Under the pieces are notes generated by a model that searched no databases, was not told the DNA's origin, and saw only the letters and a list, made by a program, of their open reading frames with translations. Of a DNA stretch of 40,014 nt, positions 10,803 through 39,887 are shown piece by piece. The DNA is from a virus: the IMG/VR virus record IMGVR_UViG_3300034073_003959, positions 1 to 40,014 of that record. One strand, written 5' to 3'. Positions within the stretch are counted from its first letter, which is position 1. Every line of letters begins with the position of its first letter. The translations under genes and the position numbers were made by a program.

Positions 10803-11065
10803 CGCTCGAGATCCTCGATACGGCGATCGTGATCGGTCACCTTCAGTTCGACCCGGTCGATCCGAGGCTCGAGCGCCCCGACGAGTCGCACGAGTTCGGA
10901 GGCGCTCCGCTCGAGGTGAGTAAGACGCGTGGGCAAGGAGACGACCAGCCAGAACACGCCGCCCGCGGAAGAGACGATTGCCGAAGCCAGGACGGCCGCG
11001 GCGGTCGCCTCGGCGATCTGGAGACGCGAATAAGGCTTGCCGCGGTCAGGTTCCGAGGAGGACAC
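10799..11065 (-). CDS. Membrane plus coiled-coil protein, lysis or tail-associated
   Basis: 88 residues from GTG 11065. A hydrophobic segment (ATAAAVLASAIVSSAGGVFW, continuing LVVSL) is followed by a heptad-like coiled coil (LTHLERSASELVRLVGALEP, then RIDRVELKVTDHDRRIEDLE). The layout of a membrane segment and charged coil is typical of XhlA-like or spanin-like phage proteins, which act with the holin. The repeated late element lies 20 nt upstream, so it may start its own transcript, leading the lysis cassette. Confidence 0.5.
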   Translation of the reverse strand: MSSSEPDRGKPYSRLQIAEATAAAVLASAIVSSAGGVFWLVVSLPTRLTHLERSASELVRLVGALEPRIDRVELKVTDHDRRIEDLER

Positions 11066-11085
11066 GGCCGGACGGTTGATCTGCC

Positions 11086-11100
11086 GTCAACGTACCGACG
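11086..11100 (-). promoter_or_regulatory. Repeated late intergenic element, copy F
   Basis: In the direction of transcription the sequence is CGTCGGTACGTTGAC. It lies 20 nt before the GTG at 11065 in a 41-nt gap. It shares T3, C4, G6, A8, T12, G13 with the strongest copies and is most like copy E. Interpreted as a candidate late promoter element on position and repetition alone. Confidence 0.5.
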
Positions 11101-11106
11101 GCGCCC

Positions 11107-12147
11107 TTAGAGCATCCGCGCGCAAAACGCCATGCTCGCGATGTCGGGGGGAGTCGTGGTGCTGTTTTTGAGAGTGACGACTTCCCATTCCTCGACGCCC
11201 GCCTCGACGACGAGTCCGTCGCCGTTCGACATCGTGTTCGACTGGACTCCGACGAGGCCGAAGTCGCTCGGCAGCCCCTCGAGGACGTAAGCGTTGTACG
11301 CGAGTCCGGCGTAGATCGGAGAGAACCTCGAGGCGTAAGCGGGGTTGGACGCCGTGTCGTGCCCCGGCAACGTGATGACCGACCTCGAGATCGTGTTGTT
11401 GTTCGAGGCGGCGTTGCCGATGTTGGAGGGGAACTCTTGCCAGAAGTTGCCGCTGTTGTTACTAGCGGATCCCCAGCACGCGTACTTGTAGTGGCAGTTG
11501 TATTGATAGCGCAACCAAGTCGAACCCGTTAGGCCTTTGAGCGCGTAACCGATGTCGATGTCTCGGCGCAGCCCGTAGTTCTGGCAAAATCCTCCCCAAG
11601 AGAATCGCTGGTTGACGTAAAAGTTGGGGAACCAAACGTTGTGCATCGACCTCTTTGAGAGGTCGGCCCAGGATTGAGGCGTCGCGTTAGTCGACGTATA
11701 GAACCAGCAAAGCTGGGTCGATCCTTGCTTGAGGACGAAGGCCGTGAATTTGTCGTCGACTCCGCTCGTGTAACGACGGACAATCAAGGAGCTCGACGTG
11801 CTCAAGGTCCCAACGGAGACCAAGAAGTTCGTCGAGTTACCGGCGGTCGATCCGAAGTCGAGATACTGCGTCCCGAGCGGAACGTGGGTCGCGACGTTCC
11901 AACCGGCAACCGCTCGAGAGTAATGGAGAGTCCCAGAGACAAAAGTCCACCAGACGTAGTCGGATCCGTAGGCGTCCGCGGTCAGTTGGACGCTATGGAC
12001 GAGGTGATCGTACGAGCCGTTTGTCCACCGATCGACGCAGCCGCCGACCGCCAATCCGGCGTCGACGTGAGCCTGCTCGAGAGCCACCATTAGCTGAGCG
12101 CCCGTCCACCCTGCGGCGAGGTTGATGTCCGCTCGAGTGCAAACCAT
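11107..12147 (-). CDS. Candidate receptor-binding tail protein
   Basis: 346 residues from ATG 12147. Seen: a short N-terminal helix with DINLAAGWTGAQLMVALEQA, then a long Ser/Thr/Asn/Trp/Tyr-rich beta-type region, including WGGFCQNYGLRRDIDIGYAL and NNSGNFWQEFPSNIG. Low charge, many aromatic and Asn residues and several Cys are usual for host-recognition tips. The DNA is visibly less GC-rich than its neighbours, suggesting replaceable, recently acquired sequence. It is the last tail gene before the lysis cassette, the usual place of a receptor-binding protein. No specific family recognised. Confidence 0.55.
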   Translation of the reverse strand: MVCTRADINLAAGWTGAQLMVALEQAHVDAGLAVGGCVDRWTNGSYDHLVHSVQLTADAYGSDYVWWTFVSGTLHYSRAVAGWNVATHVPLGTQYLDFGSTAGNSTNFLVSVGTLSTSSSLIVRRYTSGVDDKFTAFVLKQGSTQLCWFYTSTNATPQSWADLSKRSMHNVWFPNFYVNQRFSWGGFCQNYGLRRDIDIGYALKGLTGSTWLRYQYNCHYKYACWGSASNNSGNFWQEFPSNIGNAASNNNTISRSVITLPGHDTASNPAYASRFSPIYAGLAYNAYVLEGLPSDFGLVGVQSNTMSNGDGLVVEAGVEEWEVVTLKNSTTTPPDIASMAFCARML

Positions 12148-12176
12148 ACCCAGTCCGCCGGATCTACGACTCCGCG

Positions 12177-12191
12177 ATCAGGCTACGGAGT
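12177..12191 (-). promoter_or_regulatory. Repeated late intergenic element, copy C
   Basis: Transcription-direction sequence ACTCCGTAGCCTGAT, lying 29 nt before the ATG at 12147. It differs from copies A and B at only three bases and continues CGCGG exactly as copy A does. It overlaps the stop codon of the upstream gene, which shows that the element is conserved as DNA or RNA rather than as protein. Confidence 0.65.
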
Positions 12192-13157
12192 GAGATCGAC
12201 GAAGGCCGGCGTGGAAGCACTCTCGACGACCGTCAACGAGGACGCGAAAGAGGACGTTTGCCCCTCGACCAAATGGATCACCAACTCGGGGACTCCCTCG
12301 ACCCAAGTCGGCTCGGAAGGTCCCTCGAGGAAAGCGAACGACGACGACGCGTCGACGGTCGCGCCGTCGACCAAGTGCGTCATCGCCGGCTGATCGACGA
12401 GCGCGTACGCGGGAGTGACGCCTCCCTCGAGCGGCGCCCTCTCCAAGTCGAAGAAGACGCTGCCGGGGAGATTCTGGTCGTATAGGAGGGAGTAGCCCGC
12501 TTGCCCCGGCAAAGTCAGCTCGCCAACCGGCGCGAGGAGCTCGACGATCGCGGCGTCGCCGCTTAGCTCGGGGAAGCGTCCGAATCCGGCGTCGACGCGG
12601 ACCTCGACGATCCCCCCAGAGAACGGGAACGCCCGCGCCGTGACGGCGAGCCGACCGTCGGAGCCGACCTCGAGCTCGGGGACGTAGCCGCGGAAGAACG
12701 TCCCGAACGGATCGGCCGGCGGCGCCGGCGGCGTCTCCGCCTCGATCGCGACCGTCGCGCCGGCCTCCACCGGGGAGAGCGCCCGCGGCGGCAGCGTCGA
12801 CGTCACCGAGATCAGGACGACCTTTACGGAGAATCGCCCGTACGAGAGGTCGGCGACCTGAGGAGGCTCGAGGAATCGCCAAGTCCCCGGCGCGTCGAAA
12901 TCGGTCCCGCACCACGTCGTCGGGCGGAGAGAGAAGGGCAGGAACGACGATTGCGCCAGCCGATAGTGATCGAGGATCTGGCGGACCTCGGCCTCCGATC
13001 CGAGGGAGAAATCGAGCTCGAGGCGGTGCGCGGCGGCGATCCTCGAGCGGAGGAAGCGGACAGCGGCGCCGCTGAGATCGTTCCGGCGGTCCGCCTTGTA
13101 TTGGCCGGAGGTGTACGTCCGCTCCTCGGGTACGAGCGCCGGGAACTCGAACGTCAC
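12183..13157 (-). CDS. Tail protein, paralogue domain shared with the 13645-16128 gene
   Basis: 324 residues from GTG 13157. The N-terminal 85 residues run FPALVPEERTYTSGQY, then LELDFSLGSEAEVRQILDHY, then SFLPFSLRPTTWCG. The same layout (FP---P--RTY--G-Y, L-L----L-E-----L-HY, F--F-LRP-T) occurs inside the neighbouring large tail protein. The remainder is strand-rich with repeated Val-Asp-type motifs, ending with SSSFAFLEGPSEPTWVEG and similar. A tail-tip or fibre-assembly role is likely from its position. From memory, domains of this type occur in cyanophage tails. Confidence 0.6.
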   Translation of the reverse strand: MTFEFPALVPEERTYTSGQYKADRRNDLSGAAVRFLRSRIAAAHRLELDFSLGSEAEVRQILDHYRLAQSSFLPFSLRPTTWCGTDFDAPGTWRFLEPPQVADLSYGRFSVKVVLISVTSTLPPRALSPVEAGATVAIEAETPPAPPADPFGTFFRGYVPELEVGSDGRLAVTARAFPFSGGIVEVRVDAGFGRFPELSGDAAIVELLAPVGELTLPGQAGYSLLYDQNLPGSVFFDLERAPLEGGVTPAYALVDQPAMTHLVDGATVDASSSFAFLEGPSEPTWVEGVPELVIHLVEGQTSSFASSLTVVESASTPAFVDLTP

Positions 13158-13164
13158 GGCGACC

Positions 13165-13596
13165 TCAGATCAGTTTCAGAAGGCCGCCGCCGGAGGTGAC
13201 GTTGAGGGTCAGCGTCTCGTCCGCCGCGATCAAAGTGATCTCCGTCGGGTACGACCAAAACCCGATCAGGTCGTCGCTCGCCGCCGAGTCGTTGAAGAGG
13301 ACCGCGTACCGCAACGGCCCGAACCCGGCGCCGGTGCCGGTCCAAACGATCGGCCCGGTCGGAGTGATGACGTATTCGTTGGAGTTGATCTCCCGCGAGG
13401 TGGTGGTGATCTCGACCGGGCCGGGGTAGCCCCCGCCGGTGGCGATCTCCGCGACGTCGGCCTTGATCGCGTCCGTCGTCACGTCCGGCGCGACGTTCGT
13501 CAGGTAGACCTTGAAAACGCAGTTGGTGAGGTCGTGGACGCCGTTCGGCCCCGACGCGACTTGCTCGAGGAACGCGTCGAACTTGGTGAAGGTCAC
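13165..13596 (-). CDS. Small tail protein
   Basis: 143 residues from GTG 13596. Seen: TFTKFDAFLEQVASGPNGVH, then NCVFKVYLTNVAPDVTTDAI, an isoleucine/threonine-rich beta region and a final glycine-rich strand. The N-terminal pattern FxxFxExxxxGxHxL--xxFKVxLTNxAP is one I know from phage tail-region proteins of unknown precise role. It sits between two large tail-tip genes, and the repeated late element lies 26 nt before its start. Confidence 0.6.
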   Translation of the reverse strand: MTFTKFDAFLEQVASGPNGVHDLTNCVFKVYLTNVAPDVTTDAIKADVAEIATGGGYPGPVEITTTSREINSNEYVITPTGPIVWTGTGAGFGPLRYAVLFNDSAASDDLIGFWSYPTEITLIAADETLTLNVTSGGGLLKLI

Positions 13597-13622
13597 GGGT
13601 CCAACGACCGCCGAGGATCGGG

Positions 13623-13637
13623 GTCAGCGTACAGAGC
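13623..13637 (-). promoter_or_regulatory. Repeated late intergenic element, copy D
   Basis: Transcription-direction sequence GCTCTGTACGCTGAC, 26 nt before the GTG at 13596. It matches copies A and B at 13 of 15 bases, in a 48-nt gap between two tail genes. Confidence 0.65.
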
Positions 13638-13644
13638 GCGACCT

Positions 13645-16128
13645 TTACGCCGGCGGCACAAAGTCGGCGGCGCCGAAGGGGCTCGAGCCGAACTTGACGA
13701 TCAGTCGATCGACCCATCCGAGATACGAGTAATCCCCGTCCCCCTCCCAATCTCCGACGAGGAACCGGAGCGACTCCGCGCTCCCGTCGAAGTCGAACGC
13801 GTACGTCACGCCCGAGGACACGAATCCGTCGACCGCTAAGTAGAAGACTCCGTCGACCCTATAGGCGGCGACGTGATGCCAGACGTCGGCGGCGGCGGGC
13901 AACGCGGCGCCGCCCACGGCCCCCGGCAAGTAGAGCCGGAACTCCGGGACCGATCCGTCGAAGTCGATCGAGAACTCGGATCCGAACATGATCGGCGTGA
14001 CGTAGCCTTCCGCCGCGAAGAGCGACGCCGGTATCCGTAGCCGCGCCTGGACGCAGAAGTCGGCGAGACCGTAAGCCTGGGGGAGCTCGTACTCCAAGAA
14101 CTCGGCGGTCGGCACGTTGTAATCCCCGTCCGTGTAGAGAGACGAGATCCCGGCGTACTTAATCGCGACGTCGAAAGTCGGCTCGCCGACGATCTGGGTC
14201 GGACCGTAAGAGGAGCCCTCGTAGACGTAATTCAACGATCCGTCGAAGTCCCAAACCGCGGTCAACGCCGACGACTCGTAAACGAGCTCGGAGTCGGTCG
14301 ACACCTCGACCGTCGCCGGTTCTCCGTCGAAGTAGACGGTCATCAGGATCGACGGATTGCTGAACTCGACGGTCGCGGTCCCGCTCATCGCGCGGTCGAC
14401 CCGGAGCGTCGCGTCGCTGACGACCGAGACTGCGGGATCCCCGAAGAAGGCTCGGTAAAGCAAGTCGTAGTCGGTGTCGATCGAGACGACCGCCTCGCTG
14501 TCTCCGAGGGATCTGTCGACCGACAAACCCATCTGCGACGCGAGGCTCCAAACGCCCTCGATCGCCTCGATCTCGATCTGGAACGGCTCGGCCAGCAACT
14601 CGAGCTCGATCGAGAGCTCGTTGACGTCGCGAAGCTGGTTGCGGACAACCGGCTCGGACGCGTACGCCCAACCGGCCCCGCGCGGCGCGTACTCCCCCCT
14701 CGATCGCGCGCGGTTGAGATGGCGAGCGACGACTCCGAGATTGACCAGCGTCTCCGGCCGGAGGCCGAAGGTCTTGAAGCCTCCGAGAGTCGACCCGTAG
14801 TGAGAGAGGAAACGGGCGACGTCGGCCTCGGAGAGCCCGGAGTAACTCAAGGAGAGCCGGTCTCCCGCCAGAGGCGCTCGGCTGTGACGGACGCGCTGCT
14901 CGACGCCGCCGACCGAGGCGAAGGAGGAGTTGGCGTAGGCGCCGGGGACGTACGTCCTCGAGGACGGCCGGACGCCGGGGAAGGCCCAAGGGAGCTGCGC
15001 GTCCTCGCCGGGGATCTCGGGCAGGGAGGCGTAAGGCTGGCCGACCAGTAGCTCCTCGAGGCCCCATCGGCGGCACAGCCAAGCGCGCGTCCTGGCGGCC
15101 TCGTCGTCCGAGAGCGCGCGGCGGCACAGGACGACCTCGGCGACGTTCCCGCTGGCCTTGGAGGCGCGGATGTCGTTCCATTGGCCCTCCCCTTGAGGCT
15201 CGCCAAAAAGACTGAAATCGAAAGCCAGGTCGTAATCGGGACTCTCGCCGGGACCTCGGACGGAGCTCGGACAGATCACCTTGCTGGCCTGTCGACCGTT
15301 GAGATACAGGTAGCAAAAGCGATAGGGAGTCCCGTTGACGACCTCGCTCGTCGTCTTCCACTCAAAGAGGGTCCATTTCCCGAAACGATCGAACGGGACT
15401 TCGTAGTCGACGATCTCGTACTCCGGCAAAGGGGACGGATAGTTGTACGGCTCGACCGCGGCGACGGCGTCGCCGTGAAAGGCGAGCGTCCCGGCAGATA
15501 GCGGCGAGGCGGAGTCCCACAACCAAATCCGCAGCCCCGGATAGGAGGACGCGTCGTTGTAAACGCGCGGCGACCAGATCACGGGACGCCGCGGAGCGGG
15601 GAGGACGTTCTCGTATCGGTAGCCGGTCGGCTCCTCCAGCCAAGAAGCGTCGCTCGAGGGGATCGAGGGAGGGAACACTCTCGCGAGGACGAACCCGTGG
15701 TTCTCGTCAGGGGGGAGAGCTTTGTTGAGGTATCGGTAGTTGGTCCCTTGATTCCAATACCAGTAGGTCTGCTCTCGCGGGACGCCGCCGAACGGCGAGA
15801 AGAAGCTCCAAGGAGTGTCCGGTTCGGGAGTGCCCCAGTTGCCGGTCCATCCTCGCGTCGCCCCCTTGAGATACGAACCGACGGGGAAGGCGATCGTCGC
15901 TCGACCGTTGAGCGCGTTCCCCGCCTCGCCCGTCAGCCTCGGCGCGCTCGCGAACTCAACGGACAAGTCCTCTTGGTGGTCGAATCCGGCGAGCGGATAA
16001 TCGCGCGTGGGACCGCGATCGAACCACGTGCGGACTCGATCGGATCCGGGGAAGGTCTCTACACGGGACGCCTCGGCCGTGAACCAGATCGTCGCGTCGA
16101 CGTCGAGCGGAGAGAAGCGCAACGCCAT
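13645..16128 (-). CDS. Large tail protein with lectin/LamG-like domains
   Basis: 827 residues from ATG 16128. The N-terminal third (DATIWFTAEASRVETFPGSD, later VAEVVLCRRALSDDEAARTR) looks like a concanavalin/LamG-type jelly roll. The middle holds the FPGVRPSSRTYVPGAY...FKTFGLRPET segment shared with the next gene. The C-terminal 200 residues (DFCVQARLRIPASL, WHHVAAYRVDGVFYLAVDG, YLGWVDRLIVKFG) form a second LamG-like domain. Such domains bind glycans, so the protein is a good candidate for host surface recognition at the tail tip. The late element lies 21 nt upstream. Confidence 0.7.
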   Translation of the reverse strand: MALRFSPLDVDATIWFTAEASRVETFPGSDRVRTWFDRGPTRDYPLAGFDHQEDLSVEFASAPRLTGEAGNALNGRATIAFPVGSYLKGATRGWTGNWGTPEPDTPWSFFSPFGGVPREQTYWYWNQGTNYRYLNKALPPDENHGFVLARVFPPSIPSSDASWLEEPTGYRYENVLPAPRRPVIWSPRVYNDASSYPGLRIWLWDSASPLSAGTLAFHGDAVAAVEPYNYPSPLPEYEIVDYEVPFDRFGKWTLFEWKTTSEVVNGTPYRFCYLYLNGRQASKVICPSSVRGPGESPDYDLAFDFSLFGEPQGEGQWNDIRASKASGNVAEVVLCRRALSDDEAARTRAWLCRRWGLEELLVGQPYASLPEIPGEDAQLPWAFPGVRPSSRTYVPGAYANSSFASVGGVEQRVRHSRAPLAGDRLSLSYSGLSEADVARFLSHYGSTLGGFKTFGLRPETLVNLGVVARHLNRARSRGEYAPRGAGWAYASEPVVRNQLRDVNELSIELELLAEPFQIEIEAIEGVWSLASQMGLSVDRSLGDSEAVVSIDTDYDLLYRAFFGDPAVSVVSDATLRVDRAMSGTATVEFSNPSILMTVYFDGEPATVEVSTDSELVYESSALTAVWDFDGSLNYVYEGSSYGPTQIVGEPTFDVAIKYAGISSLYTDGDYNVPTAEFLEYELPQAYGLADFCVQARLRIPASLFAAEGYVTPIMFGSEFSIDFDGSVPEFRLYLPGAVGGAALPAAADVWHHVAAYRVDGVFYLAVDGFVSSGVTYAFDFDGSAESLRFLVGDWEGDGDYSYLGWVDRLIVKFGSSPFGAADFVPPA

Positions 16129-16149
16129 CGGTCGGTCGGGGTCTGCTCG

Positions 16150-16164
16150 GTCAGTGTGCCGACG
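16150..16164 (-). promoter_or_regulatory. Repeated late intergenic element, copy E
   Basis: Transcription-direction sequence CGTCGGCACACTGAC, 21 nt before the ATG at 16128. It keeps the invariant positions T3, C4, G6, A8, T12, G13 and shares 12 of 15 bases with copy F. This is one of the weaker copies. Confidence 0.5.
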
Positions 16165-16170
16165 ACGTCC

Positions 16171-19100
16171 TCACGGCGGCGCGGGCCAAGACAGGCCGAC
16201 CGAATCGTTCGCGCCGTCGTCGGGTCCCCAGGTCGTCTCCTGTATCGAGCCGTTGAGCCAGCCGTAGATGACGTGGCCGAAGTTGCCGTTGTTGTTTTGG
16301 CCGATGTTTTGGAAGGTCAAGGTCCCGCTCGAGCCTCCGGAGGGGAGGGATTGAGTGACGTTGAAACTCCCGCGATAGACGAAAGCTCGGCCCCAATAAG
16401 AGTTGACCGCCTGCTGGATCTGCGCGTTGATCGCCGAACTCCCGCCCCAGGCGAATAGGTACGCGGTGTATTCGTCGTCGGTGCTGAAGTTGCACGTCCC
16501 GATCCTTTGACCGCCGTAGAACATCGCGAAGTTGTCGTCCTTCGCCGCGTTCGAGTTGGCGACGACGATGAAGGCCGTCCCTCCCGCGCCGAGCGGCCCG
16601 AAGTGCGCGACGGCCGTGTTGAGATAGTTGACCTGGCAAAATCCGCCGGAGTGCGACTGGAAGGCGATCGGCATCGTGTAGACGATCTGAGGATCCGCCG
16701 TCTCCGGGAACGCGTCGTCAGGGAACTGGATCTGGAACTCGCCTTGGATGATCGAGTTGTTGACCGGATCGCTCGAGGGAAACGCGATCGGCGCGGTGAA
16801 ACCGGCCAAGGTGGGTAGGCCGGAGGGTTGCGGGCTGACCGCCGGCCCTCCGACTCCGACGGTCGCCACCGTCGGCGCCGATTGACCGATCGTCGCCGCC
16901 AGCGGTCCAAGGTTGCTTTGGGGGAAGATGTTGGGCGACAAGCGCATCTTCACGATCAACGTCGTCCCGGAGAACTCGACCGAGTAGAAGAACAAGCCGA
17001 CTGTCGGTCCCACGCAACCGTTCTCGTCGATCAGCTCCTCCTCGAACTCGTCGAGATCGAAGTTGAAATTGAGGTCCCCGACGTCCAGCGCCCCGAGCTC
17101 CGGCGCGTCCGGCGCGCCGAGATCGTCGCCCGTGAGATCGTCCCCGAAGTCTCCCGCGCCGTCCGCGCCGTCGCCCTCGATCACCACCTCGTAGCCGTCC
17201 GGCGCGTCGATCTCCCCGACGGTGATCTCGTCGAAGTCGATCTCGTCGAGGTCGAGGAAGACGCCGTCGAGGTTCAGGTCGGCGACGAGATCCCCGTCCA
17301 GCCCGGTGAGCCCGTCGATCTCCAGATCGTCGAGGTCGATCGCCAGGTCGTCGAGGCCGAGGTCGTTCAAGAGATCCTCGAGCTCGTCGACCGTGAGGTC
17401 CCCGAGGTCTCCGAGATCGAGGCCGAGGAGCGCCTGGATCAATTCGCCGGCGGTCAAGGCGCCGATCTCCGCCGAGGTGAGGTCGAGCAGCGCCGGCAGA
17501 TCGAGTTGATCGGCGAGGTCGAGATACGTCGCCGCGTCCTCCGCCGTGAAGCCGTCCGGGCCGCCGGCGAGCAGTTGGTCGATCGTCAAGCCCGCCGACG
17601 CGCCGTCGTCGTAATCGGCGAGCAGGCCGATCAACTGCATCAGCAAGTCGCCTTGGACTCCGTCGAAGTCGCCGAGATCAAGGTCGAAGTCGAACGTCCC
17701 GTCAAGGCCCGTCAGATCGCCGAGGACGTCGATGAGGTCTTGGAGATCGAGGTCGCCGATCGTGAGGTCGCCGTCGAGGCCGCCGAGCGTGTCGAGGAGG
17801 TCGTCGAGATCGGGGATGACGAGGTCGTCGAAATCGAGATCGTCCAGATCCGTCAGGTCGTCGATCAGGTCGCCGTCGATCGGCACGTCGACGCATCCGA
17901 CGGTCTCGCCCTCCTCGATCGTGAGCCGGACTCCGATCGGCTGGAGCGTCAAAACGAGGTCGCCGTTGGCGATCGGATTCGACGACTCGACGCAGATCCG
18001 CAAGAACCCGTCGATCTGCTGGGCGGGGAGGAAACGGAGCGTCGTGAAGTAGTTGTCGACGAACTGCTCCGAGAACAAGGGATCGCCCGGATCGACGGGC
18101 TGCGGGAGTCCGATCGGATCCGCGGACACGGAGCCGGGGTCGACGTTGGCGACGTCCAGCGCGACGAGACTCGCGCCGCTCTCGTCCACCGGCCAGTGGG
18201 TCAACTCGAGACCGACGTTCCCCTGGCGATCCGTCGCGACGGAGTTGACTTGATAGAGATACCGATGGTCTCTCGGCTGAGCGAGCTGCCCTTGGCGTTG
18301 GACGGCGATCCGTCGCTCGAACGAGGACTCCCGGCTCAGCGCCACCTCCACGACGTCGCCGGGGACGAGCGAGCCGGCGTACGAGCCGGGGATCGTCGTC
18401 AACGAGAGGGTGTGGGTGACGTGTCGCCGGCGCGCCAGGACGACCGCGGCGACCTTGACCGCGTGGACGTGATCGGTGCAGAACTCCGAGAGGTCGTACT
18501 GCTCGACCGGCGCGTCCTCCGGGGTGTCGACGTAAGCGACCCGCGTCGCGCGGATCAAACCGACGTTCCCGTCGGGTTGTTGACGCCAGAGCACCTCGAC
18601 GACGAAAGGCTGACGCTGCGCGACCGGGACGTAATCCATCCGGAAGGAGCCCTCGACGATCGTCCGCTCGTCGAACAAGCAACGCGGCAGGGACGGCCCG
18701 ACGTAGATCTCCCCGTCGCTGTTGACCGGGACCGCCGGCCGGAGACCGATCGCCCCCTCCCGCTGGACGACCGTCAGTAGATGTAGCGGCGCGAGGCGGT
18801 TGAGGAAGTCGCGGACGTTGGTCGGCGTCGCCAGGACGCCGTTGAACCTGAGGCTCTGTCGATCGCAGAACCGCGCCGACTCCTCGAGGAGCTCGTAGTC
18901 GATCAACGCCGACGGTCCGAGTCTCGCCTCGAGCAGATACAGCGCGAGGTCGGGGAACAGATCGCTGTGGTCGACGGCGTAATTGTCGAGCAACCGCTGG
19001 ACCCGGAGTCCCTCCCGGACGAAGACGTGGATCTGACGCTTGTGGAATCCCTCCTCCGATTCCTGGCGAGAGAAGGTCTCCGCGTAGGAGATCGAGGAGA

Positions 19101-19857: not shown

Positions 19858-20414
19858 AGCCGCAGGGGAGCGCCGATCAGGCTCGAGTGGAACTTGCGCG
19901 GCGGCACCTGGCTGCCGGTCGGGTTCAGGCTAGGTCCGAGCTCCAACGACAACGACACGCCGTCGCTCGAGGCGCTGACGACCTCGCCGTAGAAGCGCGC
20001 CACGACCTCGAAGGACGCGTCAGGCCCCGACAGATCCCCGGCGTCGTAAATCCGGCGGTCGTCGTCGACCGTGTACGGGAGCTCGGGGAGCGTCTGCTTG
20101 GAGAGCGCCTCGAACTGGACGATGGTGACGCCCCAGACCAGCCCGAGGCTGATGGAGTCCTCGACGAGCCGGTGCATCTCGTCGGTCGCCGGGACCTCGA
20201 CGCTGAGGGACTGCGCGTCGCCGGTCGAGGAGTTGACGATCACGCCCGTGTCGAAGGTCCGGAACTCCGCGATCTGGACGAACGGACCAAAGCGGACCTT
20301 TTGGTCGACCCAGTAGCTCTGCGCTCGGAAGAAAAGGAAATCGGTGTCGGCCTCGGAGACCTCGATCCGCGAGCCGGGAGTCACCTCGAAGAATTGCGCT
20401 TGCGCGAGAGCCAT
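19854..20414 (-). CDS. Tail assembly protein before the tail tip gene
   Basis: 186 residues from ATG 20414. Seen: FFEVTPGSRIEVSEADTDFL, SYWVDQKVRFGPFVQIAEFR, HRLVEDSISLGLVWGVTIVQ, then a strand-rich C-terminal half with FEVVARFYGEVVSASSDGVS. I do not recognise a named family, but it occupies the place of lambda L/K/I-type tail tip assembly genes, directly between tape measure and tail tip. Start and stop overlap with both neighbours, so all three are translationally coupled. Confidence 0.55.
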   Translation of the reverse strand: MALAQAQFFEVTPGSRIEVSEADTDFLFFRAQSYWVDQKVRFGPFVQIAEFRTFDTGVIVNSSTGDAQSLSVEVPATDEMHRLVEDSISLGLVWGVTIVQFEALSKQTLPELPYTVDDDRRIYDAGDLSGPDASFEVVARFYGEVVSASSDGVSLSLELGPSLNPTGSQVPPRKFHSSLIGAPLRL

Positions 20415-24756: not shown

Positions 24757-25511
24757 TCAGCGCCTCCGGGAGCGAGCTTTACGGTCGGCCTCCTTGGCGC
24801 GCTTGGCGGCCGACTCGTTGATGAGCTCCACCGCTCTCGACTCCATGACGCGTATGTCCTCGACGAGTTGCGCCGGCTCGGGGACAGCGTAAAGAGGGAG
24901 CAAACCAAGGACGACGTTGTAATCGAGGCCGATCACGCCGCCCTGGCCGGACGTTCGCCATTGCGTCTGGACGCGGACGAACATCAGGACAGAGTCCCAG
25001 TTCTCCGGCCAGACCTCGTAGTCCGGGACCGCGAGAGGTTCCTCGACCTCGAGCCCGTAGAAGGCGGCGTCCTCGAGGAACTCGTCATTGTTGACGTCGC
25101 CGCGGAACCAATGCTCGACGGCCCCGATCAGTTTTTTCTCTTGCCGTCCTTGTTCGAGTCGAACCACGCGAAGACGATCTGCGACGCGACGGTCGGGATC
25201 TCGAGGAGCTGATCCCGGACGGACTCGGAGTAGGGGATCTGCTTGCCGTCGTCGTCGACGACGCCGGTCCAACCGGCCATCACTTCGCGCGCGACGTCCG
25301 TGTCTTGGACGAGCGCCTCCTCGTCGGTGCGACGGCCGCGCTCCTGATCGCGGACGAGCTGGATGATCTCGTTGACGCGGGTCTGCGGGAGCCGGCGGAA
25401 CTCCGCGTCGAACGTGTGGACCTCGCGCTTGCCGACCGCGTCGCCGCCGGCGGGGAGCGTGATCCGAACCGGCCACTTATAGGTGGCCGACTGCGAGAGA
25501 GTGAGAGCCAT
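24757..25511 (-). CDS. Tail assembly chaperone, long form by -1 frameshift (gpGT-like)
   Basis: The short frame (25128-25511) continues in the -1 frame after the slippery heptamer AAAAAAC at 25137-25131, adding 124 residues to give about 251. The added part starts LIGAVEHWFRGDVNNDEFLE and has a typical chaperone-extension look with VRVQTQWRTSGQGGVIGLDY and a basic Lys/Arg-rich end. In siphophages this fused product loads the tape measure protein during tail assembly. The gene lies directly between the tail tube and tape measure, the canonical place, and its stop is two bases before the tape measure start. Confidence 0.82.
25128..25511 (-). CDS. Tail assembly chaperone, short form (gpG-like)
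   Basis: 127 residues from ATG 25511. Seen: SATYKWPVRITLPAGGDAVG, VHTFDAEFRRLPQTRVNEII and an acidic QDTDVAREVMAGWTGVVDDD, a pattern common in short tail chaperones that contact the tape measure. It ends DSNKDGKRKN followed by TGA directly after the slippery AAAAAAC. Most ribosomes should stop here and a minority shift to make the long form. Confidence 0.82.
   Translation of the reverse strand: MALTLSQSATYKWPVRITLPAGGDAVGKREVHTFDAEFRRLPQTRVNEIIQLVRDQERGRRTDEEALVQDTDVAREVMAGWTGVVDDDGKQIPYSESVRDQLLEIPTVASQIVFAWFDSNKDGKRKN
25131..25137 (-). other. Programmed -1 ribosomal frameshift site
   Basis: The minus-strand sequence reads A AAA AAC in the zero frame, exactly the canonical X XXY YYZ heptamer, and the zero-frame TGA (25128-25130) follows immediately. 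The -1 frame is open for 124 further codons to 24757. No clear downstream pseudoknot was worked out; the GC-rich sequence after the site could provide one. Confidence 0.85.
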
Positions 25512-26657: not shown

Positions 26658-26672
26658 ACAGGGTAGTGAGCG
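26658..26672 (-). promoter_or_regulatory. Repeated late intergenic element, copy I
   Basis: Transcription-direction sequence GCTCACTACCCTGTG, 25 nt before the ATG at 26632. It matches copies A and B at 11 of 15 bases, including GCTC and TACCCTG, in a 56-nt gap. Confidence 0.6.
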
Positions 26673-28764: not shown

Positions 28765-30063
28765 TCAGAAGGTGCCGCCGTCGATGTCGAAACCGCTCGT
28801 CGCGCCGTCCTCGAGGAACGTCACGAGATCGCTCAGGGCGACTTGGACCATCGTCCCATTGTCGTTGAGGACGAAGCGATCGGGGAGCGCGAGCGTGGTC
28901 GCGGTCGCCGCGGTCGAGCCGTCGACGATGTTGAGCTCGGCGGTCGTGACCGTCGCTCCGTCGAGGATCTCGATCTCCTGCTGAGAGAGGAGAGCGAGAG
29001 CGGCGGACGCGCCGACCTGCATCCCGGCGAGATTGTCGAGGTCGGCGTCCCAGGCCTGGACGTCGACGCCGATCTGGACGCCGAGGTTGATCCGAGCGTT
29101 TGCCGCGTCGACCGCCCCCGTGCCGCCGTCGGCGACCGCCAGGGTGCCGGTGATCGAGGCCGCGCCGAGATCGACGGCGAGCTCGCCGGACTCGAAGACG
29201 ACGCCGCCGTTCGCCTTGAGGTCGGCGCTGATGACGCCGGCGTTGATGTCGATACCGTCGCCGGCGGTCTGCTGATCCTGCGCCGAGATCGTGATCGTCC
29301 CGTCGCCGTTGGTGATCGTGACGCCGGTCCCCTCGACGAGGGTCGCGCGAGCCAGCGAGCCGTCCGCCTTCCCGATCAGGAGCTGGCCGGAGGAGTAGCC
29401 GCCGGCGAATCCGGTGCCGCCGTAGGCGACGCCGATCGTCGTGCCCTGCCAGGTGCCGGAGGTCAGGGTGCCGACGCTCGTCAGGCTCGAGCCGGTCACG
29501 CCGGAGCCGAGAGAGGACCCGCTGAGGACTTGGACGCCGTTGATGTGGAACGACTCGCCGAGCGCCAGGTCGACGCCGTCGCTGAACGTCCAGAGGCCGG
29601 TGCCGAGCAACCAGCGGATCGTCTTGTCGGTCGCGCCCTTGAGGGTGATGCCGCCGCCGTCGGCGGTCGAATCGGTCGGAGTCTCGACGGAACCGAGCTC
29701 GAGGTTCTTGTCCGCGACCGTCACCGTGACGGAGTCGACGGTGGTCGTGGTCCCCTGGACCGTCAGGTCTCCGGTGACGGTGAGCGCGCCGGCGACCGTG
29801 TGCCCGGAGACCGTCGCGCCGCTGAGGTCGACGGAGCCGGTGAAGGTCTTGGCGCCGGAGACGGTCTGGGAGGTCCCGAGGGTGACGAACGCGCCGGAGC
29901 CCGCGATGGCGGGGATGGTGACGGCGTCGCCGGCGCCGTCCGCGCCGCGACCGTAGTAGAGGACGTCGTCGACCTCGTTGTAAGCGAGCTCGGCGTTCTT
30001 GAGGCTCGAGGGAGCGCCGGCGAGGCCGCTGCTCCGGCGTTTAATCCGAACGATGTTTGCCAC
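28765..30063 (-). CDS. Fibre-like structural protein of cyanophage type
   Basis: 432 residues from GTG 30063. The N-terminal NIVRIKRRSSGLAGAPSSLK, then NAELAYNEVDDVLYYGRG, is a signature I associate with cyanophage structural proteins. It is followed by TLGTSQTVSGAKTFTGSVDL and TSVGTLTSGTWQGTTIGVAY, repeat types of trimeric phage fibres, and a C-terminal TLALPDRFVLNDNGTMVQVA part. No enzymatic domain. The late element (copy B) lies 24 nt upstream. Likely part of a neck or head fibre in view of its position just after the capsid genes. Confidence 0.65.
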   Translation of the reverse strand: MANIVRIKRRSSGLAGAPSSLKNAELAYNEVDDVLYYGRGADGAGDAVTIPAIAGSGAFVTLGTSQTVSGAKTFTGSVDLSGATVSGHTVAGALTVTGDLTVQGTTTTVDSVTVTVADKNLELGSVETPTDSTADGGGITLKGATDKTIRWLLGTGLWTFSDGVDLALGESFHINGVQVLSGSSLGSGVTGSSLTSVGTLTSGTWQGTTIGVAYGGTGFAGGYSSGQLLIGKADGSLARATLVEGTGVTITNGDGTITISAQDQQTAGDGIDINAGVISADLKANGGVVFESGELAVDLGAASITGTLAVADGGTGAVDAANARINLGVQIGVDVQAWDADLDNLAGMQVGASAALALLSQQEIEILDGATVTTAELNIVDGSTAATATTLALPDRFVLNDNGTMVQVALSDLVTFLEDGATSGFDIDGGTF

Positions 30064-30087: not shown

Positions 30088-30102
30088 GTCAGGGTACGGA
30101 GC
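30088..30102 (-). promoter_or_regulatory. Repeated late intergenic element, copy B
   Basis: Transcription-direction sequence GCTCCGTACCCTGAC, identical over all 15 bases to copy A 3.5 kb away, 24 nt before the GTG at 30063 in a 42-nt gap. Identical copies in unrelated gaps are not expected by chance. Confidence 0.75.
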
Positions 30103-30432: not shown

Positions 30433-30433
30433 C

Positions 30434-31165: not shown

Positions 31166-33586
31166 TCAGGGAGTCGCTTCTTGCGCGTAGCTGAAGCTGG
31201 CGGGCTGCTTGACCGCGAAGTCGACCGACTGGAGCGCGATCACCCGCACGGTCCCGGAGGTGGAGCCGGCGTAGGGATCCACCATCAGATCGAGACCGCC
31301 CCAGAGCGCCATGATCATGGAGCTCCAGTTGCCGAAGAACACGTCCTTGGCGGCGACTTGGTTCGAGACGGTGGTCCGATAGCCGTTCACCTCGCCGTCC
31401 TCGAACACGAAGATGGGGTCGGTGCCGGACTTGGGAGTGGTCTTGAGAGCGCCGCGAGTCGCCGCGTTCATCAAGTAGCCGAGGTTGCCGACGGCCGCGT
31501 TGGCGGTCGCCACCTCGGTCTCCATCAGCACGAACTCCTCGAAGGTGCCGTAGCCGGTGAGATCGACGGAGGCGATGCCGGCCTGCCCGCTCAGGCCGAG
31601 AGGCTGGTTGGAGGAGCCGCTGCCGTAAAGGCCGGCGCGGTCGATCTCCAGACCGAGCACCTCGACGAGGTCGTTCCGGATCATCGACTCGACGTCGATC
31701 GAGCTTTGCATCATCAGCTTCCGGCTGTAGTCGACGTAGGCGCCCAGAGTCTTGGGCGACATGTTGACTTGGTCGACGGTCTGCTGAGATTCGGTGGGCG
31801 ATCCGCCCTCGCCGACCCAGTACGCGGTGCTGGGACCGACTTGCCGGGGGATCGAAATGTCGCCCTGGAGTCCGCTCAGGATCGTCACGCCGAGGCCGGC
31901 GAGAGCGAGCTGGTTACGGAGGAGCTCGATGAAGTCCCCAGGACGGAGCACGTCGTCCACGAGGAACCCGCCGTCGCCCGGAGTCCCGGTGTTCAGGTCG
32001 GCGCGATACGGCGTCCGCAGGACGTCGTAAGGGACCTGGATCCCGGCGGAGGGACGGCCGGTCTTGGCCTGGGAGGCGCGACTCACCTCGAACTCGAAAG
32101 CCGCGGCCTCTTGGAGAGCGCGATCGGTCGGGTTGGCGAGAGCGAGGTAGGCGCGCTGGAAGCTGAAACGCTTGGCCTCGGCCTTGCTCATGCCGATCTC
32201 GGCCGCGCCCTCGCTGGCGAGAGCGACGTCCTGGGCCGGCTTGCGAGCGGTGACGCGCTCGAGCACGATCTCGCGAGCTTGATCCACAGTGGCTCCGTCG
32301 TCGATAAGTTGTTCGGCCAGGACCTCGCCCACCTCGGAGCGAGCGCACATGGCGCGGATGGTTTTCACGCGAGCGCGCTCATCTTCACGAGCGGCAATGC
32401 TCGCGGCCTCGATTGCCGCTTGGTCGGACATGGTCGTTTCGCCTGCTGGTGGGCATGGCGGCAGCGTATCGAGATCGTCTCCCGTTTCAGTCTCGGTCGG
32501 AACAACGATCTCCTCCGCCGAGAGGTCCGGCTCGAGGATCTCGAGGAGAGAGTCCCCCGCGGCCTCGTCGTCGTCGTCGTTGTGGCCCTCTAGGCAGACC
32601 GACGCCTCGACCAGAGCGGCCGGTATCCGCGCGAAACGGCCCTCGGGGATCGGACGCCGGACGGCGGCCTTGATCTCTCGAGGCTCGGAGACCTCGGTGA
32701 CGAATCCCGCCATCAAAGCCTCGTCGCCGGTCATCCACGTCTCGTCTCTCATCATCACGGCGACCTCCTCCTCGCTGACGCCGGTCGCGCCGGCGTAGGT
32801 CTTGCGATAGGCGGCCGAGATCCGCTCGAGGACGTCGGCCTGCGCGCGCATGTCGGCCGCGTCGCCCATAACTCCGCCCCAGGCCTCGTGGATCATCAGG
32901 AAGGCGTTGGTGGGCATGATGCGGACGTCGGCCGCCAGCGGGAAGAGCGAGGCCGCGCTCGCGGCGACGCCCTCGACGACGGCGCGCTTCTTGCCGGGAT
33001 ACCTCGCGAGGAGGTTGTGGATGGCGATGCCTTGGAGCGCGTCCCCGCCGTAAGAGTCGACCGAGATCGTGATCGGCCGGCCGTCGGCCTCCTTCAACGC
33101 CCGCGTCACGCCGGCGACGGTGATGTCCCAACCGACCTCGCCGTACAGACCGAGGCGCAGCGCGCCGTCGGTCTCGGAGAGGAGCTGGACGGCGGCCCGC
33201 GGCGCGGTGGTCGCCGCGGACGAGGCGGCGGCCGACGATTGCTCGCGGAGCTCCTCGATCCGAGCCGCTTTCGCGTCGGCCCAAGTTTTGCCGGGGTCTC
33301 CTCCCCAAGCCGCCCAGGCGACGCGACCGGGCGACGGGTAGCCGTCCTCGCCGGGGTCGAATCCTTCCGCTTGTTTGTCGACCTCGTGTCGAGCGAACCA
33401 GGCCCGCATCGTTATGACGGTGTCCGGGCCGATCTCGTCGCCGGAGAGGATCTGTCCCGCGCGAGTGGCCGCGGCCTCCTGGCCTCCTTCGCGGCCCTCA
33501 GCCTTCCACGCCCGATACCTCTCCGCCTCCTCTCTCATCCCCTCGGTGGGGGTGAGGTCGATCTCGGTTCCGTTGATGTTCGCCAT
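31166..33586 (-). CDS. Fused ClpP-type prohead protease and HK97-fold major capsid protein
   Basis: 806 residues from ATG 33586. Residues about 1-115 form a phage-associated domain with an RAWFARHEVDK helix (61-71) and RVAWAAWGGDPGKTW (88-102). Residues about 140-310 are a ClpP/S14-like protease with Ser210 (VEGVAASAASLF), His233 (MIHEAW) and an acidic RDETW near 280-284. Residues 340-520 are an acidic, charged scaffold-like stretch. Residues about 525-806 are an HK97-fold capsid protein (GDGGFLVDDVLRPGDFIELL, GDISIPRQ, YWVGEGGSP). An internal ATG at residue 386 (genome 32431) could give capsid alone. The late element lies 27 nt upstream. Confidence 0.88.
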   Translation of the reverse strand: MANINGTEIDLTPTEGMREEAERYRAWKAEGREGGQEAAATRAGQILSGDEIGPDTVITMRAWFARHEVDKQAEGFDPGEDGYPSPGRVAWAAWGGDPGKTWADAKAARIEELREQSSAAASSAATTAPRAAVQLLSETDGALRLGLYGEVGWDITVAGVTRALKEADGRPITISVDSYGGDALQGIAIHNLLARYPGKKRAVVEGVAASAASLFPLAADVRIMPTNAFLMIHEAWGGVMGDAADMRAQADVLERISAAYRKTYAGATGVSEEEVAVMMRDETWMTGDEALMAGFVTEVSEPREIKAAVRRPIPEGRFARIPAALVEASVCLEGHNDDDDEAAGDSLLEILEPDLSAEEIVVPTETETGDDLDTLPPCPPAGETTMSDQAAIEAASIAAREDERARVKTIRAMCARSEVGEVLAEQLIDDGATVDQAREIVLERVTARKPAQDVALASEGAAEIGMSKAEAKRFSFQRAYLALANPTDRALQEAAAFEFEVSRASQAKTGRPSAGIQVPYDVLRTPYRADLNTGTPGDGGFLVDDVLRPGDFIELLRNQLALAGLGVTILSGLQGDISIPRQVGPSTAYWVGEGGSPTESQQTVDQVNMSPKTLGAYVDYSRKLMMQSSIDVESMIRNDLVEVLGLEIDRAGLYGSGSSNQPLGLSGQAGIASVDLTGYGTFEEFVLMETEVATANAAVGNLGYLMNAATRGALKTTPKSGTDPIFVFEDGEVNGYRTTVSNQVAAKDVFFGNWSSMIMALWGGLDLMVDPYAGSTSGTVRVIALQSVDFAVKQPASFSYAQEATP

Positions 33587-33613
33587 CGTGCGCGGCGCCC
33601 TCGCGATGCCGCG

Positions 33614-33628
33614 GTCAGGGTACGGAGC
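33614..33628 (-). promoter_or_regulatory. Repeated late intergenic element, copy A
   Basis: Transcription-direction sequence GCTCCGTACCCTGAC, 27 nt before the protease-capsid ATG (33586), in a 45-nt gap. It is identical to copy B and close to copy C, with which it also shares the following CGCGG. Confidence 0.75.
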
Positions 33629-33631
33629 CCG

Positions 33632-35233: not shown

Positions 35234-35234
35234 C

Positions 35235-35777
35235 TCACTCAAACCTCACGAGGATGCGACGGCTCTGTCGCGCTGTGCCGTCGGCTCGACGCTCGGCGGC
35301 GACCTTGCTCAGGAGCCGATCGCGCCAGGCGATGAGCTGGGAGAGCATCGGCCGAGTGAAGGTGCGACCGCCGGCCGCGGTGCCGATCGTGTAGGACTGC
35401 GCGCCGGTCGACAGCGCGCGGATCGCTTGCTCGACCGCCTCGAGGTCGATCTCCGCCTGGGAGCGAGAGTCGACGGCGGCCGGCGTCCCGGAGAACGCGA
35501 GGGAGGCGAGCACCTCCACGCGACCGGCGTCCGTCGTCGCGGAGCCGGCCGGCGTCGTCGCGACCGATTGGTATTGCCAGATCCCGGCGGCCATGCCGGA
35601 GGTCGTCGCGGAGGGGATCGCGACCGACCAGACGTCGTCAGCAAAGGCCCCGGAGACGGAGAACCCGGCGCCGGCGACGTTCGTCCGGAACCAGACCGTC
35701 AGCCCCGTGGCGTCCGGGGGGACTCGTTCGTCGATCCACTCGACCGCGTCGCCCGCGTAGAACGTTCGAGGGACCAT
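35235..35777 (-). CDS. Head-tail joining protein, C-terminal gpW-like part
   Basis: 180 residues from ATG 35777. The first 100 residues are Thr/Ala-rich and beta-like (LTVWFRTNVAGAGFSVSGAF). The C-terminal 75 residues (AEIDLEAVEQAIRALSTGAQ, SYTIGTAAGGRTFTRPMLSQ, LIAWRDRLLSKVAAE) resemble small head-tail joining proteins of gpW type (helix, short hairpin, helix). The role of the N-terminal part is unclear; a head decoration function is possible. It lies between TerL and portal, and the late element (copy H) lies 21 nt upstream. Confidence 0.6.
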   Translation of the reverse strand: MVPRTFYAGDAVEWIDERVPPDATGLTVWFRTNVAGAGFSVSGAFADDVWSVAIPSATTSGMAAGIWQYQSVATTPAGSATTDAGRVEVLASLAFSGTPAAVDSRSQAEIDLEAVEQAIRALSTGAQSYTIGTAAGGRTFTRPMLSQLIAWRDRLLSKVAAERRADGTARQSRRILVRFE

Positions 35778-35798
35778 CGACTCGAGCAGGCCGTCGAG

Positions 35799-35813
35799 CG
35801 CAGCGTATCGACG
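35799..35813 (-). promoter_or_regulatory. Repeated late intergenic element, copy H (weak)
   Basis: Transcription-direction sequence CGTCGATACGCTGCG, 21 nt before the ATG at 35777. It keeps T3, C4, A8, T12, G13 but has A at position 6 and a different end. It resembles copies D and F most. The constant spacing from the start is the main support. Confidence 0.4.
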
Positions 35814-35814
35814 C

Positions 35815-38276: not shown

Positions 38277-38286
38277 CCGCTCGCCG

Positions 38287-39123
38287 TCATTTGCGGCCTC
38301 GATGGCCGGGTTGGATCTCGCCGGGGTGCTCCTCCCGCTGGGTGCGACGTCGCGCCGCCTCGATCTGTTCGATCGCCGCGGAGTAGCAGTCCTTCATGCC
38401 GCGGATCGCGTAGTGGACGACGCTGTAGCGATACGCGGAGTCGTCCACCGGCCGCATCGGCGTGACGCCGTGGACGAGCTCGTTGCCGGGGAAAAAGACG
38501 ACCCATCCGTCCCGACAGGGGAGAGTCACGTCGTACTCCGGGAGGTGGAGTCGACCGCCGCGCATCCCGCGCCGGAGCACCGGCATCCCCGTCCACGTCG
38601 GGAAGTTGGCCCGGTCCCGGTGATACGGCAAGGCGGAGGAGAGGTTGATGTTGCCCGACGTCCACAGAGATCCGGGGACCATCCGCCAGTCCTCGTGGAC
38701 GCGAGAGACGGTCTCGCGGTCCCGCTCCCAAACGGTCGGCGCGACCTCCTTCATAAAGTCGCCGAGGACCGCGGCGACGCGGAGGAGGACGGCGCACTCG
38801 TCGGGTTGGTCGACGTGGAGCGACGCGGGCTTGCAGCCCTCGCGGCGAAGGATGACGCTCCGGCCCGCCATGCCGAAGGTCCGGGAGGTGTTGCGCGTCC
38901 CCGAGCCCCGAAGGATGGTCGAGAACTTGATCGCGCGGACGGCGGCCCGGTAGACCGCCAGGTCGAAGGGGAGACGGCAGTAGCAGAGGACCGGCTCGCT
39001 GGTCTCGCCGTCGAGGAACAAGGTCTCGCCGTCGTGCGTCGGCTCGAGGTCCGGGACCTCCTGGCCGATGTAGACGTCGGCCTCAGTCCGAGAGAGGACG
39101 CGGGGTAGCTCGAGGGTCTCCAT
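38287..39123 (-). CDS. TET/JBP-like 2-oxoglutarate/Fe(II) dioxygenase
   Basis: 278 residues from ATG 39123. N-terminal SRTFGMAGRS (80-89) is a segment typical of phage TET/JBP enzymes. The Fe ligands are His168 and Asp170 in PYHRDRANF and His218 in NELVHGVTPM. The 2OG-binding Arg is likely Arg232 in YRYSVVHYA, and Cys246 in GMKDC matches the family end. The connecting strands are MRGGRLHLPEYDV and DGWVVFFPG. Phage members oxidise 5-methylcytosine in DNA to hydroxymethylcytosine, which other enzymes then modify further. It lies between a ParB-like gene and TerS. No cytosine methyltransferase is seen in this window, so the substrate is unproven. Confidence 0.85.
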   Translation of the reverse strand: METLELPRVLSRTEADVYIGQEVPDLEPTHDGETLFLDGETSEPVLCYCRLPFDLAVYRAAVRAIKFSTILRGSGTRNTSRTFGMAGRSVILRREGCKPASLHVDQPDECAVLLRVAAVLGDFMKEVAPTVWERDRETVSRVHEDWRMVPGSLWTSGNINLSSALPYHRDRANFPTWTGMPVLRRGMRGGRLHLPEYDVTLPCRDGWVVFFPGNELVHGVTPMRPVDDSAYRYSVVHYAIRGMKDCYSAAIEQIEAARRRTQREEHPGEIQPGHRGRK

Positions 39124-39839
39124 CAGATCGCCTCCCGGATCAGCTTGGCGACGATCTCGGCGTTGCTCGAGACCTCGTTGCGTTCGCGGAGCTCGCGGAG
39201 GATCTCGACCAGCTCGGCGAACTCGTCGAGCGGATACTCGAGCATCAGCGCCTTGGTCGCCTTGTTGCGGTAGCCCTCAAGGAACTCGTTGAAGCTCTGA
39301 TCCTGACGGACCTCGCCGTCCGTCTCCGGCTCGTTCGCCCCGGCGCCGGCGCCGCGGATCTGAGCGGCGCCGGCCTCCGCCGCCGCGGCCAACGTCTCGA
39401 CGGGGATGGCCTCCTCCAGCGCGGCCTTGAGGTCGTCGAGCTCCTCGGCGGACCAACCGAGACCGTCGAAGTCCATTCGGAACTCGGCCTCGAGGCGCGC
39501 GATCTCGTCCGCCAGGAGTCCGTCGTCCCATCGGGCCATCTCGGCCGTCCGGTTGTCGACGAGGACGTACGCCCGACGCTGCGCCTCGGAGAGGTGATCG
39601 AGGGGGATGACCGGGACCTGCGTCATCCCGATCTGGATCGCGGCCTTGAGCCGTCCGTGTCCCGCCAGGATCCCGCTGTCGCCGTCGACGAGGATCGGAT
39701 TGTTGAAGCCGAGCTCGCGGATCGAGCGCGCGATCGCGTCGATCTGGGACTGGGGATGGAGGCGCGCGTTACGCGCGTAGGGGATCAGCTTGTCGACCGG
39801 CCAGAGCTGGATCCGCTCCGCCATTTGCTGCGCGCCCAT
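39123..39839 (-). CDS. ParB/Srx-like DNA-binding protein
   Basis: 238 residues from ATG 39839. Residues 9-100 form a ParB/Srx-like domain: IQLWPVDKLIPYARNARLHP, IDAIARSIRELGFNNPILVD, GILAGHGRLKAAIQIGMTQV (the ParB GHGRL box) and YVLVDNRTAEMARWDDG. The C-terminal half has a Glu-rich helix (LEEAIPVETLAAAAEAGAAQ) and a final charged helix. In many phages this domain is attached to, or lies next to, DNA methyltransferases. Here it stands alone beside the TET-like enzyme, with overlapping codons between the two genes, so they probably act together. Copy G of the late element lies 33 nt upstream. Confidence 0.82.
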   Translation of the reverse strand: MGAQQMAERIQLWPVDKLIPYARNARLHPQSQIDAIARSIRELGFNNPILVDGDSGILAGHGRLKAAIQIGMTQVPVIPLDHLSEAQRRAYVLVDNRTAEMARWDDGLLADEIARLEAEFRMDFDGLGWSAEELDDLKAALEEAIPVETLAAAAEAGAAQIRGAGAGANEPETDGEVRQDQSFNEFLEGYRNKATKALMLEYPLDEFAELVEILRELRERNEVSSNAEIVAKLIREAI

Positions 39840-39872
39840 CTGAGTCCGGACTGGAACCTGATACCGCGAGGC

Positions 39873-39887
39873 TACAGGCTCCGGAGA
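39873..39887 (-). promoter_or_regulatory. Repeated late intergenic element, copy G (weak)
   Basis: Transcription-direction sequence TCTCCGGAGCCTGTA, 33 nt before the ParB-like ATG (39839). It shares CTCCG-AGCCTG with copy C. If real, it would mark the first promoter of the whole late cluster. Confidence 0.4.

What the first reader, a model, noticed from the sequence alone, without database searches (positions are those of the whole stretch)
11065..39887. Repeated 15-bp element in nine late intergenic gaps at a fixed distance from start codons
Seen in the sequence: in transcription direction, GCTCCGTACCCTGAC occurs identically at 33614-33628 and 30088-30102. Related copies are at 12177-12191, 13623-13637, 16150-16164, 11086-11100, 26658-26672 and, weaker, 35799-35813 and 39873-39887. 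All lie on the minus strand, all in the short gaps of the late cluster, each 20-33 nt before a start codon (ParB-like, head-tail, capsid fusion, fibre, small pre-tube gene, three tail genes, lysis leader). Nine of about eleven late gaps of 30 nt or more carry one. I find none upstream of the early plus-strand genes and no conserved -35 partner. A TACNCT core could be -10-like. Inference: a late-promoter family, possibly for the phage sigma factor at 7830-8870.
Basis: partly seen in the sequence, partly recalled or inferred. Interest (0 to 1): 0.88.

Follow-up and report, generated by a model that had tools for sequence, protein, structure and literature searches.

The report
Single-element late promoters matching phage sigma
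A cyanobacterial virus and many of its uncultured relatives mark their late genes with a short DNA switch, TCCRTASCCTGA, that appears to be read by a sigma factor the virus itself encodes and that seems to have lost the parts normally used to read a second (-35) signal.

Summary
Leave-one-out scans recover most copies near the top of 80,000 positions, and the 12 best hits of the window matrix are all on the late (minus) strand. A matrix built only from other phages ranks window sites 1-4, 6-8 and 10-12.

The window is a relative of cyanosiphoviruses S-LBS1 and S-CBS1/3. The refined element is T(-16)C(-15)CR-TA(G/C)CCT(-7)-GA: the -10 anchors TAnnnT with GA after and TC before, and no -35 in 52 sites. 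In relatives whose sigma factor shares a 'PGSH.Q' region 3.0 it lies on the strand opposite sigma, 39 vs 1, against 11 vs 12 around other phage sigmas; TAGCCTGA is the most strand-biased of 21,674 8-mers. These sigmas form one clade and have lost the region 4.2 residues that contact -35 DNA. Predicted starts give leaderless or 12-26-nt leaders.

Best explanation: single-element late promoters for the phage's own sigma, a new variant of a known kind. No RNA data exist, so start sites and sigma dependence are inferred. An intragenic promoter before the capsid domain is suggested, not proven.

The parts
7830..8870 (+). phage sigma factor (regions 1.2, 2, 3, 4; 'PGSH.Q' region 3.0; -35-contact residues of region 4.2 lost)
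   Evidence: Pfam r1.2/r2/r3/r4; 50% identical to the S-LBS1 sigma; region 2.4/3.0/4.2 alignment; AF2 model and PDB matches to SigA/SigB; clade support 0.995
33615..33626 (-). late promoter element TCCGTACCCTGA, before the protease-capsid fusion gene (start codon at predicted +25)
   Evidence: rank 2 with relatives-only matrix
30089..30100 (-). late promoter element TCCGTACCCTGA, before the fibre-like gene 28765-30063 (start at predicted +22)
   Evidence: rank 3
12178..12189 (-). late promoter element TCCGTAGCCTGA, before gene 11107-12147 (start at predicted +27); overlaps the stop codon of the upstream gene
   Evidence: rank 1 with relatives-only matrix
13624..13635 (-). late promoter element TCTGTACGCTGA, before ORF 13165-13596 (start at predicted +24)
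   Evidence: rank 4
26658..26669 (-). late promoter element TCACTACCCTGT, upstream of the tail protein gene 25543-26469
   Evidence: rank 6
39874..39885 (-). late promoter element (weak) TCCGGAGCCTGT, before the ParB-like gene 39123-39839
   Evidence: rank 7; leave-one-out rank 141 with the window matrix
35800..35811 (-). late promoter element TCGATACGCTGC between the terminase and head-tail joining (35235-35777) genes; S-LBS1 has TCCATAGCCTGA in the same gap
   Evidence: rank 10; leave-one-out rank 45; S-LBS1 2505
32461..32472 (-). candidate intragenic promoter TCGATACGCTGC inside the protease-capsid ORF, with an in-frame ATG at predicted +26 that opens the 421-aa capsid domain
   Evidence: rank 11; same place in L013 group, G040, G049, G051; a peptide-level rival is not excluded
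31166..32431 (-). possible separately expressed major capsid protein from the internal ATG (421 aa)
   Evidence: phrog_617 major head protein match begins at residue 376 of the fusion
11087..11098 (-). late promoter element TCGGTACGTTGA, before the small gene 10799-11065 that leads the lysis genes; S-LBS1 and S-CBS3 have elements in the corresponding gap
   Evidence: leave-one-out rank 4, rank 35 with relatives-only matrix
16151..16162 (-). late promoter element (divergent) TCGGCACACTGA, before tail gene 13645-16128
   Evidence: leave-one-out rank 8; rank 87 with relatives-only matrix
24884..24895 (-). candidate additional element TCTTTACGCTGT upstream of the tape-measure gene
   Evidence: rank 8 with relatives-only matrix; not further tested
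19925..19936 (-). candidate additional element GACCTAGCCTGA upstream of tail gene 16171-19857
   Evidence: rank 5 with relatives-only matrix; not further tested

Best explanation
The repeats are late promoters of the single-element type. Host core RNA polymerase carrying the phage-encoded sigma factor (7830-8870) binds T-16 C-15 n n T-12 A-11 S C C T-7 G-6 A-5 through sigma regions 2 and 3.0, with no -35 contact, and starts transcription about 7 nt after the -10 element, usually at A. Early plus-strand genes, sigma among them, would be read first by the host sigma; once sigma is made it would switch on the minus-strand morphogenesis and lysis genes from several dispersed promoters. Shown here: the element, its strand and gap placement, the lack of a -35, the co-occurrence with one sigma clade, and the loss of the -35-contact residues in that clade. 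Inferred: recognition by this sigma, the start sites, and late timing.
For: Window: top 12 matrix hits all on the late strand; a matrix from other phages only recovers them. S-LBS1: four TC..TA..CTG copies, all on the late strand in gaps, none on the other. Around 47 dereplicated relatives with PGSH-type sigma (747 kb, window excluded): 39 copies opposite sigma vs 1 on the same strand; around 36 other phage sigmas 11 vs 12. TAGCCTGA is first of 21,674 8-mers in strand bias. A matrix from window + S-LBS1 only, applied to 15 full relatives: 63 late vs 3 on the sigma strand at score >=13. 26 of 35 PGSH contigs gave no match to this capsid protein, and the 8 of these read in full carry the element too. 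No -35 information in 52 sites. A at predicted +1 in 33 of 56 sites; start codon at -1..+1 (13 sites) or 12-26 nt after it (33 sites), none between. Sigma: R451, H455, E458 and R584/E585/Q589 equivalents changed in the PGSH clade; the region 4.2 residues are kept in cyanobacterial sigmas and in S-CBS1/3 and KBS2A; clade support 0.995. TCCATAGCCTGA about 0.33 per genome in 151 genomes of the family of a Synechococcaceae MAG.
Against: No RNA 5'-end or in vitro transcription data. Correlation across phages does not prove that this sigma reads the element; an unseen co-inherited activator could. Two window copies (11086, 16150) and the ParB-side copy are weak. Contigs G006 and G008 carry the element without a detected sigma, though they are collinear fragments of G049- and G040-like phages and end several kb short of the sigma position. 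A few PGSH contigs have only one or two strong copies. KBS2A, with a non-PGSH sigma, has one hit on each strand, and G001/G002 have two each with no sigma found. The mapping to E. coli residue numbers rests on alignment.
Confidence: 0.85

Rival explanations
1. The elements are promoters read by the host housekeeping or a group-2 sigma factor, not by the phage sigma.
For: TAnnnT is also the minimum of ordinary -10 elements; the phage sigma belongs to the RpoD-like family. The 12-mer is commoner in host genomes than its reversed control (50 vs 8 copies).
Against: Still only about 0.33 copies of TCCATAGCCTGA per genome in 151 genomes of the family of a Synechococcaceae MAG, no sign of a regulon. 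Tied to one phage-sigma clade and not enriched around other phage sigmas. No -35 and no TGn extended -10.
Confidence: 0.07
2. The elements act in RNA, for example as a translation enhancer or processing site at the 5' ends of late cistrons.
For: In the window the spacing to start codons is narrow (23-31 nt after the core) and only one strand is used.
Against: In relatives the element is either directly at the start codon or 12-26 nt before it, which fits a transcription start better than a ribosome signal. -10 anchors at the right spacing and an A favoured at predicted +1.
Confidence: 0.04
3. The elements are operators of a phage activator or repressor protein inherited together with the sigma gene.
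For: Several regularly placed copies per genome, as in a regulon.
Against: Asymmetric sequence with -10 anchors and no palindrome; the change in sigma residues coincides with the change in element.
Confidence: 0.04

Closest known systems
phiEco32 late/middle promoters (tAATGTAtA) and sigma phi32_gp36
   Same: Phage sigma that redirects the host core enzyme; single-element promoters without -35, starts 6-8 nt downstream, in front of late genes (PMC8948821).
   Different: phi32_gp36 has no region 4 homology; here region 4 is kept as a fold but has lost its -35-contact residues. The element sequence is unrelated and the phages are cyanosiphoviruses.
Phage 7-11 late promoters (GTAAtg-16-aCTA) and sigma gp47
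   Same: Phage sigma with region 4 homology and a set of late promoters (PMC8948821).
   Different: Two-element promoters; here one element only.
T4 late promoters TATAAATA and gp55 (from general knowledge)
   Same: Single -10-like element without -35, read by a phage sigma.
   Different: Different sequence; gp55 lacks a region 4 DNA reader and works with gp33 and gp45, for which no counterpart was sought here.
S-LBS1 / S-CBS1 / S-CBS3 RpoD-like sigma factors
   Same: Same gene, same position convergent to the lysis genes; S-LBS1 has the same element.
   Different: The S-LBS1 paper's promoter passages describe no such late promoter (PMC6157547). S-CBS1/3 sigmas keep the canonical contacts and their genomes have no strong copies.

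Membership tests
Sigma-70 family (group 1/2-like) | Regions 1.2, 2, 3 and 4 present | tested here: met
   Pfam matches to all four; model matches SigA/SigB in initiation complexes
Sigma-70 family (group 1/2-like) | -35-contact residues of region 4.2 (R584, E585, Q589) | tested here: not met
   Replaced in the window sigma and in the PGSH sigmas whose region 4.2 is held
Extended -10 (TGn) promoters | T-15 G-14 before the -10 hexamer | tested here: not met
   T-16 C-15 C-14 instead
Sigma-70 -35/-10 promoters | TTGACA-like -35 at 15-19 bp spacing | tested here: not met
   No enrichment over control positions; no conserved column upstream
Single-element phage late promoters (phiEco32 type) | One conserved -10-proximal element before late genes, no -35 | tested here: met
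Single-element phage late promoters (phiEco32 type) | Sigma without region 4 | tested here: not met
   Region 4 Pfam match and predicted helix-turn-helix present
Single-element phage late promoters (phiEco32 type) | Transcription by the phage sigma holoenzyme starting at the element | not testable with these tools
   Needs RNA or in vitro data

The most novel reading that the evidence does not exclude
A sigma clade of cyanophages has turned region 4 into a domain that no longer reads DNA at -35 and reads a compact 12-bp promoter through regions 2 and 3.0 alone. This lets promoters sit at stop codons, directly at start codons (leaderless late mRNAs) and inside genes, including one that makes the capsid protein separately from a protease-capsid fusion gene.
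Probability: 0.35. Interest if true: 0.75.

Novelty: new variant of a known kind. Interest (0 to 1): 0.62.

Why it matters
Cyanosiphoviruses are known to carry sigma factors, but I found no paper in the open-access library that names their targets. This pairs a sigma clade with its likely promoter in dozens of uncultured phages, gives a natural set of matched sigma and promoter variants, and predicts which residues matter. It would make late-gene starts in such genomes readable from sequence.

Tried and rejected
A plain mismatch search was not significant. A first gene-gap count with leftmost start codons was uninformative. Many TC..TA[CG].CTG hits of the form gaTCCTTACGCTGg in capsid relatives, and the hits in L011/L025-L027/L045, look like conserved coding sequence and were not counted as support. 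The sigma as single query found no relatives in viral contigs; an alignment did. The hit list counts some sites twice because two patterns overlap; searches use unique sites. The matrix was trained on opposite-strand sites from some of the same contigs; one search repeats the strand test with a matrix from the window and S-LBS1 only.

Full report
What the window is. The 40,014-base record is a viral contig of 67% G+C. Its capsid, portal, terminase and tail genes lie on the minus strand; the capsid protein matches best to Synechococcus phages S-CBS3 and S-CBS1, with S-LBS1 close behind. A sigma factor with regions 1.2, 2, 3 and 4 lies at 7830-8870 on the plus strand, convergent to the lysis gene at 9165-10331, as in S-LBS1, whose sigma is 50% identical.

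The observation. All nine copies are present. By simple mismatch counting they are not remarkable, but as a weighted motif they are: held-out copies rank 1, 1, 1, 4, 5, 8, 12, 45 and 141 among 80,000 positions, and the top 12 hits of the full matrix are all on the minus strand. The last lies in the fibre gene and is probably coding coincidence. No column upstream is conserved at a -35 position.

The same element in relatives. S-LBS1 has four copies of TC..TA..CTG, all on its late strand, in the gaps after the terminase and before the lysis leader among others, and none on the other strand. S-CBS3 has TACCCTGA and TATCCTGA in the corresponding two gaps. Using alignments of the sigma factors (A1, A2) I fetched relatives from IMG/VR. 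They fall into two sets by sigma region 3.0: 'PGSH.Q'-type (two with PAIH.Q), like the window and S-LBS1, and others. In 47 dereplicated PGSH loci without the window the pattern occurs 39 times opposite sigma and once on the same strand; in 36 other loci 11 and 12 times. Of 21,674 8-mers, TAGCCTGA is the most strand-biased. In 15 full contigs a matrix made from the window and S-LBS1 alone finds 63 late-strand and 3 sigma-strand sites at score 13 or more. 26 of 35 PGSH contigs gave no match to the window's capsid protein; 8 of these are among the 15 contigs read in full, and they carry the element too, so the link is with sigma rather than with one set of structural genes. A matrix built without the window then recovers the window sites at ranks 1-4, 6-8 and 10-12.

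Anatomy. In 52 non-redundant sites the element reads T-16 C-15 C-14 R-13 T-12 A-11 S-10 C-9 C-8 T-7 G-6 A-5; flanks carry almost no information and TTGACA-like matches at 15-19 bp spacing are no commoner than at control positions. The sites were selected by the core, so its invariance is partly by construction; the flanks are not. Copies lie just after the stop codon of the upstream gene far more often than random positions (with some double counting). With the start site placed 7 nt after T-7, A is at +1 in 33 of 56 sites, and start codons lie either at -1 to +1 (13 sites) or 12-26 nt downstream (33 sites), with none between. Shine-Dalgarno-like 4-mers precede only 5 of 29 leadered starts.

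The sigma factor. The PGSH sigmas form a clade with support 0.995. Against E. coli RpoD they change R451, H455 and E458 in regions 2.4/3.0 and R584, E585 and Q589 in region 4.2, whereas S-CBS1, S-CBS3, KBS2A and cyanobacterial sigmas keep the region 4.2 arginine, glutamate and glutamine. The predicted fold keeps region 4 helices and matches SigA and SigB of initiation complexes. A sigma with region 4 but without its -35 contacts fits promoters without a -35.

Alternatives. The host sigma is unlikely as reader: TCCATAGCCTGA occurs 50 times in 151 genomes of the family of a Synechococcaceae MAG that holds a PGSH-like sigma, about 0.33 per genome. That is more than the reversed control (8) but shows no regulon; some copies may lie in prophages, which I did not check. 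Contigs with the element but no detected sigma (G006, G008) are collinear with G049 and G040 and stop several kb before the sigma position. An RNA-level element does not fit the bimodal distance to start codons.

Capsid site. Inside the protease-capsid fusion ORF the window has TCGATACGCTGC with an in-frame ATG at predicted +26 that opens the 421-aa capsid domain; G040, G049, G051 and the L013 group have TCCATAGCCT-type copies at the same place, with the ATG at +32 to +41 in the G contigs. All are read in the same frame (HSL or DTL), so a conserved peptide such as a cleavage site is a fair rival.

Verdict. The kind is known from phiEco32, where single-element promoters go with loss of region 4 (PMC8948821); the variant, the element and the sigma clade appear undescribed in the papers I could search.

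Noticed in passing
window 38287-39123 (-): A protein with a Pfam Tet_JBP oxygenase match, whose best PHROG is labelled queuine tRNA-ribosyltransferase; it follows the ParB-like gene in the late cluster and could act on modified bases.
   Followed up: no
window 13165-13596 (-): The gene after the 13623 element is best read from GTG at 13596, not from the longer leftmost-start ORF 13154-13750.
   Followed up: partly
L116, L131, L272, L274, L126, L129; S-LBS1 (L084) 2505: The element ends 3-5 nt before an ATG, which would give leaderless late mRNAs.
   Followed up: partly
L164, L166-L168 (sigma loci): Another phage sigma group also lacks the region 4.2 -35 contacts and may have its own single-element promoters.
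   Followed up: no
G169:C120:1912-1951: A cyanobacterial genome with three tandem TCCATAGCCTGA copies 14 bases apart; not examined.
   Followed up: no
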